DNA of 55,952 bases. Origin: Fibrobacterota bacterium (GTDB taxonomy: Bacteria > Fibrobacterota > Chitinivibrionia > Chitinivibrionales > FEN-1185). Under the pieces are notes generated by a model, which was given only the letters and a program-made list of their open reading frames with translations, did not search any database and was not told the DNA's origin. Within the stretch, counting starts at the first letter, position 1, and each line of letters begins with the position of its first letter. Positions 46,821-53,455 of the stretch are shown here, one piece after another. The stretch is from the NCBI GenBank assembly GCA_003165595.1, contig PLWQ01000028.1, positions 320,168 to 376,119 of the forward strand, written 5' to 3'. The translations under genes and the position numbers were made by a program.

Positions 46821-47435
46821 TCAACCACGGGGCGCGCGACTTGCCACCGTTCCTACCATAGTGTAGATGCCGGCCGCGCCGCCTTGGTTCTTGAGGAACC
46901 GGCAAAACCCGTTTAGCGATCTGCCGCTGCGGTACAGATCGTCCACGACGAGCACGGTTTTCCCGAGGAAGCAGTCGGCCGTGGTTGCCGAGGCAAACGC
47001 AAACTCGCGCTGCCCCGGACGAGTCCCGGGCTCGCGTTCTTCAAACACGGTCACCGCATACTGTGCCGCGGCAATTCCTGTTTGTCGCGAGAGCGCCGCG
47101 ACGAATTCAACCACGCGGGGATAGTCGTGCCTGTCCGGAGCCACAGGCACCGCCACCAGACAATTGATGGTGCGTCCGCTGCAACCACACAACGGTTGAA
47201 TCGCCTGCGAAAAGTCTTTCACCAGCGCGTCCAGCAGTGCGCGCTCATCCTGATGCCGGAACCGATACAGCCGGTCGCCCAGATCCGATCTGCGGGTTGT
47301 CGGCAGCCCGGACGGGGTGGTCTCGGCGATAACATGCCTGTCGAGCGCCCAGCCCCGGAAGCAGTCTCCCTTGATTTCCACCAAGGCAGGCGCCGCTGCC
47401 GGAGTCGCATCGTGACTGAGGGGCAAGCCATTCAT
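46821..47435 (-). CDS. ComF-like phosphoribosyltransferase-domain protein
   Basis: A 204-residue protein. The PRPP-binding motif VLVVDDLYRSGRS (near residue 165) is complete. The preceding VAVPVAPDRHDYPRVVEFVAALSRQTG resembles the ComF/GntX core. The N-terminal zinc ribbon of full ComF is absent. The first 70 residues (DCFRGWALDRHV, RFRHQDERALLDALV) instead match the RFK/K-type linker loosely. The start is the ATG at 47433-47435; a TTG at 47448-47450 is alternative and neither has a clear RBS. It is divergent from the TPR gene. Confidence 0.75.
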   Translation of the reverse strand: MNGLPLSHDATPAAAPALVEIKGDCFRGWALDRHVIAETTPSGLPTTRRSDLGDRLYRFRHQDERALLDALVKDFSQAIQPLCGCSGRTINCLVAVPVAPDRHDYPRVVEFVAALSRQTGIAAAQYAVTVFEEREPGTRPGQREFAFASATTADCFLGKTVLVVDDLYRSGRSLNGFCRFLKNQGGAAGIYTMVGTVASRAPRG

Positions 47436-47510
47436 AATGTATCTTATCAATATACATTTATGTGCCTTGCCGCTTCTTGTCCGAAGCAGGCCCGGCAGGA
47501 TTGCAAACCA

Positions 47511-48503
47511 ATGAGCGACGAATACCGCGAATTTTCCGCCCTCATGAAACGTTCCGCCTTTACCCAGGCGGCGGCGTTTGCAGAGCGTCAGCTTGTGGCT
47601 GTTGGTGACAAAAGCGAATTCTGGCTCACCCAGCTTTCCAATGCCCTGCGCGAATCGGGAAATGCCAAAGGCGCGCTTGCCGCAGCCGACAAAGCCAGCA
47701 CTCTTTCACCGCGCAACGCTTGGGCGCTGCTTGCCCGGGCGGAGGCGCTTGTCAAGCTTGGGCGCCTCGGCGAGGCTTTGCCCCTGTTCGAGGAGGCTTT
47801 GGTTGACGCACGCGCTGCTCAGCGCGCTCGTTGGGGGCGGCTTTCCGCCCTCACGCTTCTCAAGCAATGGGACCGCGTCATCACGGAGTGCGCCTCCCCC
47901 AACCTGTCCGCCGCCGCGCGGCCGTTTCGCGTCAAGGCCCTGCACGGGCTCGGCCGGCTTGACGAGGCTATTGTGGAATGCGAATCGTGGCTTTCGGAAG
48001 ACGGTGATTCCCGGCAGGCGTTGTGGCAGATGACCGAACTTCGAATCGCGCGCGACGGGCTCGACGAGGTACTTGCAAACATGGGTCGCCTTGCCAAAAT
48101 CCCCGGAAAACCCGCGGTGTACGGCGAAATTTATGCATCACTGTGCAAGCGCGCCGGGAATTCCGCCAAGGCGGCGGACCAGTATGCCAGGCTTTCCCGG
48201 GGTAATTCGTCTCCGGATCTGCTTCGCAAACAAGCGTTCGCGCTTGCAAAGAGCGGCAGGGAATCGGAGGCGCTGCCCATTATGGAAGAACTGCTGCGGC
48301 TCGACCCAAAGGACATGTACCTTCATGCCGCGTATACTCCGGCCTGTAAACGCAAGGGTTCGCTGGACCGCGCTCACGGGTTCTACGCCAAGCTTATCAT
48401 TTTGCACCCGGAAGAGAAATCGTTGTATGGGCGGATCAAGCGCCTGGACAGAGAGATTGCCGAGGCCGCCCGCGATACCGACCCACAAGGCGGGTTGTCA
48501 TGA
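47511..48503 (+). CDS. TPR protein paired with the ATPase-PglZ fusion
   Basis: A 330-residue helical repeat protein. About eight TPR-like units are visible (for example GNAKGALAAADKASTLSPRNAWALLARAEALVKLGRLGEALPLFEEAL and RESEALPIMEELLRLDPKDMYLHAAY). There is no signal peptide or catalytic motif. The stop overlaps the next start by ATGA (48500-48503), so the two proteins are made together and probably interact. Its likely role is an adaptor or regulator of the large downstream protein. Confidence 0.82.
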   Translation: MSDEYREFSALMKRSAFTQAAAFAERQLVAVGDKSEFWLTQLSNALRESGNAKGALAAADKASTLSPRNAWALLARAEALVKLGRLGEALPLFEEALVDARAAQRARWGRLSALTLLKQWDRVITECASPNLSAAARPFRVKALHGLGRLDEAIVECESWLSEDGDSRQALWQMTELRIARDGLDEVLANMGRLAKIPGKPAVYGEIYASLCKRAGNSAKAADQYARLSRGNSSPDLLRKQAFALAKSGRESEALPIMEELLRLDPKDMYLHAAYTPACKRKGSLDRAHGFYAKLIILHPEEKSLYGRIKRLDREIAEAARDTDPQGGLS

Positions 48504-51500
48504 ATCTCAAGATCGGCGATCTCATTGATGTCCCGCCGGTTGAAACCGTCATCCGGCTCGACGAGGCGCTCTCTCGGTCGCAGGCCATTACCTCCACCTT
48601 TGTGTGCACCTCGGACGTGGGCAATCACCTCGACGTCCTGGCCGCTTCGTTTTCGCGTGAGACGGGCAACGGTATCTTTCTCGAAGGCGACTTCGGATCG
48701 GGAAAATCCCATTTTCTCGCCGTGGTCGCGGCGTGGCTCGACGACCGTCCCGGCGCCGATGCGCTTTCGAGCCGCGTTTCTTCGCTTGCGGCGTACAAAG
48801 CCTCGGCCAGACGGCTTCTCCCCGTCGAAATCTCTCTGGTGAGGTATCGCGCCGCCACGCCGCTGGAACGCATTATCACCTCCGCAATCGAATCCGCGCT
48901 CGCCCGCCATGGCGCGGTCGTCGCACTGTCGCCCCTGTCGCGGTTTCGCGAGCGGCTCAGGGAGATTCTTGTCGATCCGGGCCGCCTCGCCGCGTTCACA
49001 AAAGCCACCGGGATCGACGCCGGCGGGATCAACGCCTGGTTTTCCGAACATCCCGGCGACGCGCTGGCAACAAGCATGGCGTTCCTCTCGGCGCAGGGCG
49101 TTGAGTCGCCCTACGCGCTTATTGACGAGCGCGACAAGACGTTCGAGGCCGCCTTCCGAGCCGTGCGCGAGGCATCGTTCGACGGCATGGCGCTCATCAT
49201 CGACGAACTGTCCGAATTCTTCCGCTCCAAACCCGACGCCGCCTCGCTCAACGAGGACGCCCGCACCCTGCAACTCCTCGGCGAGCTCTCGGCAACGCAT
49301 CCGGTGTGGATCATCGCCGCGGTTCAGGAAAGCATCGAGCGCACGGGCGATATCGCGTCGGCGACATTCCGTAAAATCAAAGACCGGTTTCCGGTCAGAT
49401 TTAAGCTGTCAACGCTGCACATCCGAGACCTCATCGCCAAGCGGCTCGTGAGGCATCGCGACGGCGCGGGCGAGAAGCTCCTTGCGGTGTACGACGAACT
49501 CCGGAAGAATTTTCCGCGACTCAATTGCTCAGCGGAACAATTCATCGCAACCTATCCCCTGCATCCGGAAACGCTTTCCTTGCTCGAGGGCCTTGGCGAA
49601 CTTTTTTCTCAGCACCGCGGCATCGTGGATTTCGTTCATGCCCGCATCGCGGGCGACCCCAGTCGCGGCATCCTCGGTGTTCTGGACCGGCCGGCGGGCG
49701 AACTCCTTGCTCCGGATTCGATCTACGAACACTTCTCCCAACGGTTGGCCGAGATTTCCGCTTTCCAGGCTTACCCGCGCCATATCGTGCCTCATCTCGA
49801 CGAGGTGATCGGTCGCGTGATTGACGGAGAGGAGGACCTGGCGCTGGCGCGGCGGCTGGTGAGAATGCTCGTGCCGTACGCGATTCATCCGACCGCGCAG
49901 GCGCCATCCGCCCGCAAACTTGCCGAGCTTGCCGGCGTCATGATCGCGCCGCACGACCCCGATGCGAACGCCGAGTTTGTCGCCAAATCGATCCTCGATC
50001 CGCTGGCCGGATCGAGCCGCTTTCTTTCCAAGCGCGAATCAGCTTCCGGCGTTTTGCTCGACGCGCAGTACGTGCTCTCCGCAAGCGAAAACCATGCGGG
50101 CAATCTGCGGATGCGCATCGATAAGGCCATGGCCGATTGCAAGCGCGACGACTCGCGGCTTGTGCTCGATCCGCTGGCCGAGCTGCCCGCCGGCATTTCC
50201 TGGCCGGGCGCGGAAATCCTGCGCGGGTGCGTTGAGCGAACGATACTGTGGCGGCAGACGCAACGCACGGCATCGGTTGCCTTCGCGCCCGCGGGCTCCG
50301 AGCCGCAGCTTGCTGCCTCGATTTCAAGTGCTATTGACAATGGCGATGCGGATTTCGCCGTGGTTATCATTGCGGGAAACGGCACATTCTCCTGCAATCA
50401 TACGGCTGTGTGGCGCTTTGGCGTTGCGGGCCAGGATCTCGACACGCTGGCCGAATACTTCGCGGCACGGTCTGTTGCGCGGGATCTGCATGCCTCGAAT
50501 CCCGCGCATACCCCTCTCATACCGCTTGCGAACGACGCAGTTCGCCGGCTTGAGCCCGCGGCCAGAGCCGCCGTCCTAAATGCACTGTTCGGCGGCTCGT
50601 TTGACGGCGGCGCCATTGTGGTGGACCCGTCGGCCATCCAGGTGCGTCGCTTCGACCGCCTTTTGGAGGCGGCCGGAGAGCTGCTCCTTGAGGAACGGTT
50701 CCCGAAATTCAAGGACATTGCGCCGCGACTCTTGCAGCAGTCGATCCGCCTGTACCAGCGCCTGCTCGACGAGTTCGTCGCTCCCGGCTCCATTTCCATG
50801 AGTGAGGCGCGCGCGAAGTCGCTTACGGAGGCTATCGAGGCGCTTGCATCACCGCTCGGGATCGTGGAAGTCAAGTCGGGCTCATACAGGCTCGCGCCGG
50901 CCATGGACGATCAGCCGTTTTTGGTTTATGTTATGTCAATGATACGGCCCGCCGGCCAGACGCGTATTACCGATCTGTTCCACGGCCTTAGGATCGGCCC
51001 CTACGGCGTGCCGCGAGAATGCGCATGCTTTCTGTTTGCCGCCCTGGCCCAGAGCGGCATTGTTTCCCTTTTGCGAAGCGGCAGGGCGGTGCCGCTCGAC
51101 TTTCTGTCGATGACGGCCGTTGAATCGGCCGACGCCATTGTTCCCGGAGAGATTATCTCCCAGGCGGACCGCGAAACCCTGACGTCGCACTGTCCGTTTC
51201 TGGCCCCGCAGGGTGGATGGCCGTCGTTCGGACTCCGACAGCAACGGGAAGCTTGGCAAACCCTTGTGCGGCTCAAGCCGCAGTTCGAGAGTGTGCTGTC
51301 CGACAACGCAAAGCGTCTCTCGGCTAGTGAGGAATTTTCCGCTTTTGCTACGTTTGATTTCGGTTCGCTTCGAGAAACTTCCCGATTGCTCGGTGAGGTA
51401 TTCTCTCAAGTCAAAGTGTCGCATCAAGCCCGCGAGGGACTTGAGCGGTTCCTTTCCGCATGGCGCTCGTCCGGGCTCTCCTCGGCCCAACTGGAGCAGG

Positions 51501-53455
51501 TACGGTCGGTCAACCGGTTCTTTTCTCGCTTCGCGGAAAAATTCATTTTCATCGCGCACTACGTGAGGCATCGGTCGGTGGAAGAGGCGGCGAAAATTCA
51601 CGAACAAATCGCGCAGTGCCGCGAACCGGTGCTCGCAATGCTCAAGGACCCGCTACATCTGGTTGTGCCGGACGAAGGAGTCCAACTCGGCGCGGCATTC
51701 GACGTGTTCCGCGAAGCCTATGCCGCCTTGTACCAGCGCGAACATGCGCTGCATTACGAGGCGCTGCTTCCGCCGAAGGTTTCTAAATCGGAATCGCGGC
51801 TGGTTGCGCTGTTCGAATTGCTCGGCGCCATTGAGCAGCTGGACAGGCCGCCGGGTCTGGACGGTCTTTTGCGCGAAATCCGGGGCGACGGCCGGCACCG
51901 CTGCAACCGGCCCGTTGTAGAAGAGTTGCTCAGATCTCCAACGTGCGGATGCGAATTTCAGATGGGTAGCGAACGCTCGTCGATTTCGAAAAAGGATTTT
52001 ACCTTTGCCATAGAACAGGCTTTTTCCGCATACAGGTCTATCCTCTCGTCGCCGCAGGTAATCGAGGCGGTCAAAGCCCGGGCATTCGGTATTCGGGACA
52101 TGGATGCCGATGCCGCCGGTCGGCTTGGCAAGCTGTGCGCTGTTCTGCAAGAGCGTCCGGCAACATCCTCTCTCGTGGATCTGCTCGACGAACGCACCGT
52201 TGCCGAAATAGGTCGCGCGCTGTCCGGTACCATCACACTTCAGCAACGCAGCCTGGGAAAGCTTGCCGCGGACCTGTCCGGAAGGCGGCTCACGCCGGCC
52301 AAGGTTCACGGCATCATCGATTCCTGGCTTGCAAGCCCCGACGCAAACACGCTTGTGTCGATAGACGGCGGCGCCGTTGCGGCAGACACGGCCCTGCAGC
52401 GGCCAACGTGGTGGGCACAGTTGCACCCGGAGCTTTCCGCCGGCGGATCAAACGGTCCCGCAGCCGATGATTCCCGAAGGCTTGAGGCAGAACTCGAAGA
52501 ATTGTATCCCGCCCGCGAGATGTCAAGGCGGCTGATGCACTTTACAGACGAACAACTCGCCGGTTTCGTTTCCGGCGAGCGTTTTCATACCGGCGCAATT
52601 TGTGCCGCCTGGGAATTGCTGGTCAAACGCATCGTGCAACGGCCCGGCGCCGTTCCGGCGGAGAACCTGCGCTCTCACCATTGCAATTCCGACCAAGCGG
52701 CATCGATTGACAACAGGCTCAATCTTCTTACCTCTCTTGCACAATGCAACTCTTTGCCGTTTCCCGATCGTCTGCGCCAACGGCTGTTTGCGGCCGGCCT
52801 CTGGGCCGACAACTGGAGTACGGCCGACATGCGTAAGTCTCTGGCCGCGATTGTCGCCTCGCTGGAATCCCTTGCCGCCGACTGGCTCGCCGTGCTGCCT
52901 CCGGTATCCGCCCTCGACACGACCGACCGTCCGTTCGTGATTGTGCTCGATGCGGTCCCGCCGGACCTTTGGCTGGAAGTTTCCCAACAGTTCCGGGACG
53001 CACTTGCAAACACCACGATCTCGTGGGCGCGACTTGCCTGCGGCCCCCACACGGTTCCGTCGTTGTGCGCGCTGTTCGGGATAGACTCTGCCCGCGACCC
53101 GCTGGACGAATTTCCAGCTCGCGGCATTTCTTACCACTCCGTCAAGGGCGACGAGTCAACGCCGCTGATCGACCTCCTGCCGCCATTTTCGGCCGAGGTA
53201 ACCGTTGTCGTGCGGGTTACCATTATTGACGCTTCAGCGCACAACGCGAGCCTGCCGCTGCCCTCCATGACGGGCACGCTCTCCACGGTGCTTTCGCGCC
53301 ATTTGCCTGGCGTAATTAAGGCGTGCGCGGAGCACAAGCGCAGGCTGGTGCTTACCGCGGACCACGGACTGTCATGGGCAAAAGGAACCTTGTTTCACGG
53401 AAAAGGCGGAGTGTTCGAAGAGGCGGTAGTGAGGGTAGAATGGAAGAAGGTGTGA
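48500..53455 (+). CDS. BrxC/PglY-like ATPase fused to a PglZ-like domain
   Basis: A 1651-residue protein. The N-terminus is a large P-loop ATPase: Walker A GDFGSGKSH (residues 63-71), after the segment IKxGDLIDVPPVETVIRLDEA that resembles PglY/BrxC proteins, with a Walker B-like MALIIDELSEFF near 229. A long helical middle (about 350-1450) has no motif I know. The last about 180 residues look like the alkaline-phosphatase fold of PglZ: FVIVLDAVPPDLW near 1477, PHTVPSLCALFG, IIDASAHN, and VLTADHGLSW near 1619. In BREX systems these are separate proteins. No PglX, BrxA, BrxB or BrxL is nearby. A defence role is inference. Confidence 0.72.
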   Translation: MNLKIGDLIDVPPVETVIRLDEALSRSQAITSTFVCTSDVGNHLDVLAASFSRETGNGIFLEGDFGSGKSHFLAVVAAWLDDRPGADALSSRVSSLAAYKASARRLLPVEISLVRYRAATPLERIITSAIESALARHGAVVALSPLSRFRERLREILVDPGRLAAFTKATGIDAGGINAWFSEHPGDALATSMAFLSAQGVESPYALIDERDKTFEAAFRAVREASFDGMALIIDELSEFFRSKPDAASLNEDARTLQLLGELSATHPVWIIAAVQESIERTGDIASATFRKIKDRFPVRFKLSTLHIRDLIAKRLVRHRDGAGEKLLAVYDELRKNFPRLNCSAEQFIATYPLHPETLSLLEGLGELFSQHRGIVDFVHARIAGDPSRGILGVLDRPAGELLAPDSIYEHFSQRLAEISAFQAYPRHIVPHLDEVIGRVIDGEEDLALARRLVRMLVPYAIHPTAQAPSARKLAELAGVMIAPHDPDANAEFVAKSILDPLAGSSRFLSKRESASGVLLDAQYVLSASENHAGNLRMRIDKAMADCKRDDSRLVLDPLAELPAGISWPGAEILRGCVERTILWRQTQRTASVAFAPAGSEPQLAASISSAIDNGDADFAVVIIAGNGTFSCNHTAVWRFGVAGQDLDTLAEYFAARSVARDLHASNPAHTPLIPLANDAVRRLEPAARAAVLNALFGGSFDGGAIVVDPSAIQVRRFDRLLEAAGELLLEERFPKFKDIAPRLLQQSIRLYQRLLDEFVAPGSISMSEARAKSLTEAIEALASPLGIVEVKSGSYRLAPAMDDQPFLVYVMSMIRPAGQTRITDLFHGLRIGPYGVPRECACFLFAALAQSGIVSLLRSGRAVPLDFLSMTAVESADAIVPGEIISQADRETLTSHCPFLAPQGGWPSFGLRQQREAWQTLVRLKPQFESVLSDNAKRLSASEEFSAFATFDFGSLRETSRLLGEVFSQVKVSHQAREGLERFLSAWRSSGLSSAQLEQVRSVNRFFSRFAEKFIFIAHYVRHRSVEEAAKIHEQIAQCREPVLAMLKDPLHLVVPDEGVQLGAAFDVFREAYAALYQREHALHYEALLPPKVSKSESRLVALFELLGAIEQLDRPPGLDGLLREIRGDGRHRCNRPVVEELLRSPTCGCEFQMGSERSSISKKDFTFAIEQAFSAYRSILSSPQVIEAVKARAFGIRDMDADAAGRLGKLCAVLQERPATSSLVDLLDERTVAEIGRALSGTITLQQRSLGKLAADLSGRRLTPAKVHGIIDSWLASPDANTLVSIDGGAVAADTALQRPTWWAQLHPELSAGGSNGPAADDSRRLEAELEELYPAREMSRRLMHFTDEQLAGFVSGERFHTGAICAAWELLVKRIVQRPGAVPAENLRSHHCNSDQAASIDNRLNLLTSLAQCNSLPFPDRLRQRLFAAGLWADNWSTADMRKSLAAIVASLESLAADWLAVLPPVSALDTTDRPFVIVLDAVPPDLWLEVSQQFRDALANTTISWARLACGPHTVPSLCALFGIDSARDPLDEFPARGISYHSVKGDESTPLIDLLPPFSAEVTVVVRVTIIDASAHNASLPLPSMTGTLSTVLSRHLPGVIKACAEHKRRLVLTADHGLSWAKGTLFHGKGGVFEEAVVRVEWKKV

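What the first reader, a model, noticed from the sequence alone, without database searches (positions are those of the whole stretch)
47511..53455. TPR gene coupled to a single-protein ATPase-PglZ fusion outside any BREX cluster
Seen: an ATGA overlap joins a 330-residue TPR protein to a 1651-residue protein with Walker A GDFGSGKSH at the start and DAVPPDLW, TVPS, DASAH and DHG in phosphatase-like order at the end. Known: BREX uses separate PglY/BrxC ATPase and PglZ proteins plus PglX and others. Here the two appear fused, with a TPR partner and none of the remaining BREX genes. This may be a minimal defence or quality-control system.
Basis: partly seen in the sequence, partly recalled or inferred. 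Interest (0 to 1): 0.85.

Follow-up and report, generated by a model that had tools for sequence, protein, structure and literature searches.

The report
TPR partner plus BrxC–PglZ fusion protein
A pair of neighbouring genes packs the motor and the nuclease of the BREX virus-defence machine into one giant protein, next to a docking partner and without BREX's DNA-marking enzyme; the pair recurs in at least seven bacterial phyla and I found no description of it, but its actual job is untested.

Summary
A 330-residue TPR gene (47511-48503) overlaps by ATGA a 1651-residue protein (48500-53455). Residues 4-1282 align end to end with BrxC/DUF6079 (hhalign P 99.9; model of residues 1-900 vs BrxC, Z 23.4). 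Residues ~1294-1651 fold as PglZ (Z 16.9 to PorX, 14.5 to BREX PglZ). The putative catalytic residues T1518, D1577, H1581, D1621, H1622 and H1633 are invariant in 17 homologues; D1484 is nearly so. Pfam's PglZ model misses the domain.

Family-A homologues occur in 9 of 40 genomes of the order and in seven phyla. In 21 of 22 loci a TPR gene lies directly upstream; nothing else is conserved. A diverged second family has the same layout, with a TPR gene adjacent in 12 of 15 loci and, in three, a RecQ helicase gene between the two. No methyltransferase accompanies the pair. The window's genome has a separate type-3 BREX locus elsewhere.

Defence is only plausible: neighbourhoods are not defence islands, the family-A tree follows phyla, and phage and viral collections lack it. 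Likeliest reading: a BREX-derived, DNA-loaded ATPase with a tethered nuclease, controlled by the TPR protein. Novel variant; function inferred.

The parts
47511..48503 (+). TPR protein, 330 aa, first gene of the pair
   Evidence: TPR_14 1.1e-14 and others; homologue directly upstream of the fusion in 21 of 22 family-A loci; alignment A2
48500..53455 (+). BrxC-PglZ single-chain fusion, 1651 aa, ATGA overlap with the TPR gene
   Evidence: full-length homologues 41-55% identical
48500..52345 (+). BrxC/DUF6079-like part, residues 1-1282: ORC/Cdc6-type AAA+ domain, middle region, helical arm
   Evidence: hhalign 4-1282 vs BrxC 2-1217 of 1231, P 99.9, E 1.5e-34; model of 1-900 vs BrxC 9zll/9zdx Z 23.4/22.4, Foldseek 3.7e-13
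48683..48712 (+). Walker A, EGDFGSGKSH (residues 62-71)
   Evidence: G63-D-F-G-x-G-K-S-H invariant in 17 homologues
49190..49207 (+). Walker B, ALIIDE (residues 231-236)
   Evidence: D235, E236 invariant
51902..51952 (+). Cysteine cluster C1135, C1149, C1151; the C-x-C resembles the NPVCxDCGF motif of BrxC (possible metal-binding hook)
   Evidence: invariant in the homologues; BrxC consensus NPVCxDCGF; equivalence and metal binding inferred
52379..53452 (+). PglZ part, residues 1294-1651: helical linker plus phosphatase-fold core, without the N-terminal domain and C-terminal sandwich of BREX PglZ
   Evidence: VIA-align: model 415-772 (= residues 1294-1651) on BREX PglZ 219-753, Z 14.5; PorX Z 16.9
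52919..53452 (+). PglZ catalytic core with D1484, T1518, D1577, H1581, D1621, H1622, H1633
   Evidence: invariant (D1484 nearly so) across homologues; aligned in register to PglZ profiles up to the DHG; same residues in the second family

Best explanation
A two-gene, BREX-derived DNA machine. Shown by sequence and fold: the large protein is a complete BrxC-type AAA+ ATPase with the PglZ core attached at its C-terminus, and the TPR protein is its near-constant partner gene. Inferred: the ATPase half oligomerises and loads on DNA as BrxC is thought to do; the tethered PglZ domain is a metal-dependent nuclease/phosphodiesterase, as measured for BREX PglZ and PorX; the covalent link does the work of BrxB, which in BREX joins BrxC to the N-terminal part of PglZ, the very part missing here; the TPR protein senses a trigger or docks a client (sometimes a helicase) and controls the nuclease. 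With no methyltransferase in the locus, the host is unlikely to be protected by site marking, so activity is probably gated by a trigger. The most likely use is defence against invading DNA; a general DNA-surveillance role is the close rival.
For: Architecture. Catalytic residues conserved. TPR partner conserved across two diverged families. Helicases built into the operon in some lineages: RecQ between TPR and fusion in L144-L146, SNF2 helicase 25 nt upstream of the TPR gene in L025 and RecD2 directly after the fusion in L037. [quoted passage not shown] BrxC N-terminal domain binds BrxB:PglZ (PMC13326643). Patchy distribution: 9 of 40 genomes of the order, 2 of 338 in the sample around L025, a Verrucomicrobiota bin.
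Against: Neighbours are not clearly enriched for defence genes (vs 78). Not found in phages, viral contigs or, beyond BrxC-like ATPase hits, plasmids. The fusion tree groups by phylum, and some neighbours (serine acetyltransferase, homoserine succinyltransferase, a membrane protein) are shared between loci of the order, so it behaves like a long-resident chromosomal locus. No activity was measured; one family-A locus (L027) has an alpha/beta hydrolase in place of the TPR gene, and three second-family loci lack an adjacent TPR gene.
Confidence: 0.5

Rival explanations
1. Housekeeping genome maintenance: the fusion is an ATP-driven nuclease for DNA repair, replication-fork or plasmid/chromosome quality control, with RecQ, RecD2 or SNF2 helicases as partners, and BREX and this protein share a common ancestor.
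For: Phylum-coherent tree, shared local gene order within the order, metabolic surroundings, repair-type helicases in the operon, absence from mobile collections.
Against: Presence is too patchy for a core process: 9 of 40 in the order, absent from the other genome of the same genus, G001.
Confidence: 0.3
2. Signal phosphodiesterase: the PglZ domain, whose closest solved relative is PorX, cleaves cyclic or linear oligonucleotide signals, and the ATPase-TPR part controls that activity rather than acting on genomic DNA.
For: PorX is the top fold match and cleaves cyclic and linear oligonucleotides; BREX PglZ does so too (PMC12205998).
Against: The attached part is BrxC-like, a DNA-binding ATPase family, and operonic helicases point to DNA; no gene of any kind other than the TPR gene is conserved nearby.
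Confidence: 0.15
3. A decayed or partial BREX locus, or an assembly artefact joining two genes.
For: Both halves are BREX-type.
Against: Full-length intact homologues in independent assemblies of seven phyla, catalytic residues conserved, same partner gene.
Confidence: 0.01

Closest known systems
BREX BrxC (PglY), DUF6079, PF19557
   Same: End-to-end alignment of residues 4-1282 with BrxC 2-1217; Walker A/B; similar Cys motif late in the chain; best fold match for residues 3-527
   Different: Only about 16% identical over the alignment; carries PglZ as an extra C-terminal domain; no conserved PglX, BrxB, BrxA or BrxL beside it
BREX PglZ and PorX PglZ domain (PF08665)
   Same: Fold (Z 14.5 and 16.9), order and register of catalytic residues, helical linker before the core
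   Different: Below Pfam detection; lacks the N-terminal part and the C-terminal sandwich of type-1 BREX PglZ; fused to an ATPase instead of a receiver domain
BREX-related (BR) and BREX-related capture (BRC) systems, Rakesh & Krishnan 2026 (PMC12839542)
   Same: BrxC-like ATPase and/or PglZ recruited outside canonical BREX
   Different: BRC has seven separate components including HerA/FtsK; BR systems are described as RM-like, with methyltransferase and helicase; the main text mentions no TPR protein and no BrxC-PglZ fusion
Type-3 BREX of the same genome (contig C2)
   Same: Contains BrxC and PglZ as separate genes
   Different: Separate locus with BrxF, BrxC, PglXI, helicase and PglZ; not linked to the window

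Membership tests
BrxC/DUF6079 family (protein level) | Homology along the whole BrxC chain, with Walker A and B intact | tested here: met
PglZ family (protein level) | Over Pfam PF08665 curated cut-off | tested here: not met
   no hit for the window protein; one of 17 homologues at E 0.03
PglZ family (protein level) | PglZ fold and metal/nucleophile residues in register | tested here: met
   control comparison with an unrelated profile P 0.1
BREX system | BrxC and PglZ as separate proteins | tested here: not met
   single open frame here and in full-length homologues
BREX system | PglX/BrxX methyltransferase, or the sulfur-modification set of type 4, in the locus | tested here: not met
   no neighbour conserved beyond the TPR gene; neighbour scan shows no PglX among the 25 hits listed
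BREX system | BrxB/iSTAND and BrxA-like partners | tested here: inconclusive
   none conserved next to the pair, but these families evolve fast and single genes could be missed
BREX system | Restricts phage | not testable with these tools
   needs an experiment
BREX-related capture (BRC) system | HerA/FtsK translocase in the locus | tested here: inconclusive
   no neighbour of any kind conserved beyond the TPR gene; HerA not searched by its own model

The most novel reading that the evidence does not exclude
A new, widespread class of BREX-derived immune system in which motor and nuclease are one protein, self/non-self marking is dispensed with, and a dedicated TPR protein (sometimes with RecQ) supplies the trigger; found in at least seven phyla in at least two diverged families.
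Probability: 0.4. Interest if true: 0.85.

Novelty: new variant of a known kind. Interest (0 to 1): 0.7.

Why it matters
How BREX turns recognition into restriction is still unclear, partly because it needs a large multi-protein complex. A natural single chain that joins BrxC to the PglZ core, drops the BrxB bridge and the methyltransferase, and keeps one small partner is a compact object on which ATPase-nuclease coupling could be studied directly. It also suggests that PglZ nucleases can be controlled without self-marking.

Tried and rejected
Single-protein scan of genome contigs found nothing; the alignment-based scan succeeded. PDB sequence search with the C-terminal profile found nothing; fold search did. 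Defence-island enrichment: 97 neighbour ORFs vs 89 control ORFs, no clear difference (79 vs 35 matching families, but many of the neighbour families are matched by one SNF2 helicase and one RecD2); the control stretches were picked by hand. Mobile-element origin: no match in IMG/VR or phages; plasmids only with about a quarter of the query, the N-terminal ATPase part, at 22-28% identity. 'No BREX in these genomes' is not claimed in general: DUF6079 search found only the fusion in most of them, yet G029 and G012 also carry a BREX-type PglZ. A two-chain model of TPR with the fusion could not be run. Papers: no mention of TPR with PglZ in a relevant sense; supplements and preprints were not searchable. 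L155 is a BrxC-like protein without a PglZ part and was left out of the second family.

Full report
What is there. The window carries a TPR ORF read from 47511 (ATG) to 48503 and a 1651-residue ORF 48500-53455, sharing ATGA. The TPR frame is open further upstream, but aligned homologues start at the 47511 methionine. Pfam sees several TPR models in the first protein (best 1.1e-14) and DUF6079 (1.7e-25) in the second; PADLOC and NCBIfam name the N-terminus BrxC/PglY, with SspC as a weaker match. No library saw a PglZ domain in the single sequence.

The whole front is BrxC. An alignment of 15 fusions (A9) compared with four BrxC proteins taken from these genomes (A8) aligns residues 4-1282 with BrxC 2-1217 of 1231, probability 99.9, E 1.5e-34. 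The printed alignment was cut short, so the equivalence of the BrxC motif NPVCxDCGF with the invariant C1149-x-C1151 is by motif and position only. An AlphaFold2 model of residues 1-900 (pLDDT 87) has BrxC as best solved match by a wide margin: Foldseek 3.7e-13, VIA-align Z 23.4 over 469 residues at 3.6 A, against 14.9 for the best non-BREX chain.

The tail is PglZ. Profile comparison of the last 178 residues gives P 96.5 against PorX-type PglZ and P 93.5 against BREX PglZ, with D, T, D-x3-H and DHG in register; an unrelated TPR profile gives P 0.1. These are single comparisons, not database-corrected. The model of residues 880-1651 (pLDDT 87) independently ranks PorX first: the top 17 Foldseek rows are all PorX, VIA-align Z 16.9 (254 residues, rmsd 6.2), then BREX PglZ Z 14.5 (336 residues, 4.8 A), then ENPP-type phosphodiesterases at 13. 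The BREX PglZ match runs from PglZ residue 219 to 753, so the fusion keeps the helical linker and core and lacks the N-terminal domain and C-terminal sandwich described for BREX PglZ. T1518, D1577, H1581, D1621, H1622 and H1633 are invariant in 17 homologues; D1484 is replaced in one, L033.

Distribution. In the window's order, identified as Chitinivibrionales of Fibrobacterota from the titles of the matching public contigs, 9 of 40 genomes carry it; the other genome of the same genus does not. The alignment scan of genome contigs adds Verrucomicrobiota, Kiritimatiellota, Lentisphaerota, Planctomycetota, Spirochaetota and Thermodesulfobacteriota. These are bins, so a single locus could be misplaced, but each phylum with two or more rows in the tree groups together, except Lentisphaerota. 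The scan used only two peptide patterns, so counts are lower bounds. In a sample of 338 genomes from the phylum of L025 only two carry it. It is absent from IMG/VR and phage records, and plasmids show only the ATPase part of BrxC-like proteins.

The TPR partner. A profile of the TPR proteins finds one directly upstream on the same strand in 21 of 22 distinct loci that have upstream sequence (two of the 21, L031 and L032, may be near-copies), often with the same 4-base overlap. The exception, L027 (Desulfobacteraceae), has an alpha/beta hydrolase gene overlapping the fusion start instead. All-against-all comparison finds no other gene shared by more than four loci.

A second family. Searching phylum samples with A9 turned up diverged proteins, mostly of 1440-1790 residues, in Desulfobacterota (18 of 395 genomes match, nearly all with this kind), Planctomycetota and Spirochaetota. 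Their tails carry D, T, D-x3-H, DHG and H, invariant in 13 aligned sequences, and match both the family-A tail (P 96.6) and BREX PglZ (P 96.4). In 12 of 15 loci a TPR gene is adjacent: directly upstream in six (in L149 judged from a profile hit on the upstream stretch only), divergent in three Planctomycetota loci, and in three (L144-L146) separated only by a RecQ helicase gene on the same strand. A profile built only from the C-terminal cap of family-A TPR proteins picks out exactly the 11 adjacent TPR proteins among 184 ORFs, with E 0.005 or better against 0.7 for the next. The TPR protein is therefore a specific, long-standing partner and not a chance neighbour.

Defence or not. For: both halves come from a phage-restriction machine, the distribution is patchy, and helicases of three kinds (RecQ, SNF2 in L025, RecD2 in L037) join the operon, as helicases do in several BREX types. 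Against: neighbours are mostly metabolic, PADLOC hits are not clearly more frequent than in control stretches of the same genomes, the tree follows phyla, and the locus shares neighbours between genomes of the order. The window's own genome has a separate type-3 BREX locus (BrxF, BrxC, PglXI, helicase, PglZ), so the pair is not that genome's only BREX-like system. In the order, six of the nine carrier genomes show neither another DUF6079 protein nor a BREX-type PglZ, subject to incomplete assemblies.

How it may work. [quoted passage not shown] In BREX, the BrxC N-terminal domain binds BrxB:PglZ (PMC13326643), and the solved complex 9zll contains BrxC, BrxB and the N-terminal part of PglZ. Here that part of PglZ is missing, no BrxB is conserved nearby, and PglZ is covalently attached to the end of the BrxC chain. 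I infer that fusion replaces the BrxB bridge, and that the TPR protein gates the nuclease, since no methyltransferase is there to mark self. These steps are inference; no activity has been measured.

Novelty. The 2026 survey of BREX diversity (PMC12839542) searched BrxC and PglZ broadly and describes new BREX-related systems, but its main text has no TPR and no BrxC-PglZ fusion. Supplements, preprints and subscription papers could not be checked. I rate it a new variant of a known kind.

Noticed in passing
L107 (G000 contig C2, 44000-63900), 5779-19566: Separate type-3 BREX locus of the window's own genome: BrxF, BrxC, PglXI, a 554-aa ORF that may be a DUF262-type insert (not checked), BrxH helicase, PglZ and a possible BrxA (no model hit).
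   Followed up: partly
L144 1352-10060, L145 1154-9685, L146 5174-14031: Three-gene operon TPR - RecQ - BrxC::PglZ in Desulfobacterota; RecQ has DEAD, RQC, HRDC and zinc-binding domains.
   Followed up: yes
L027 9171-9995: An alpha/beta hydrolase gene overlaps the fusion start in place of the TPR gene: a possible partner swap.
   Followed up: partly
L016 3049-3963, L022 14836-15813, L024 6963-7805, L030 4032-4622: Likely membrane protein (two members scanned, no Pfam match), conserved directly downstream of the fusion in four loci of the order but not in the window.
   Followed up: partly
L038 1843-6450: 1536-aa CHAT-TIR-TPR protein a few kb upstream of the Planctomycetota pair.
   Followed up: no
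window 46821-47450 (-): Divergent phosphoribosyltransferase gene next to the TPR gene; its homologue (44% identical) sits in the same place in L040, so this end of the locus is syntenic between families of the order.
   Followed up: partly
L155 6863-10243: 1127-aa BrxC-like protein in Planctomycetota with no PglZ tail and no TPR neighbour.
   Followed up: no
L033 and L038: Planctomycetota fusions carry an extra low-complexity insert in the PglZ core, and L033 has Ala at the position of D1484.
   Followed up: no
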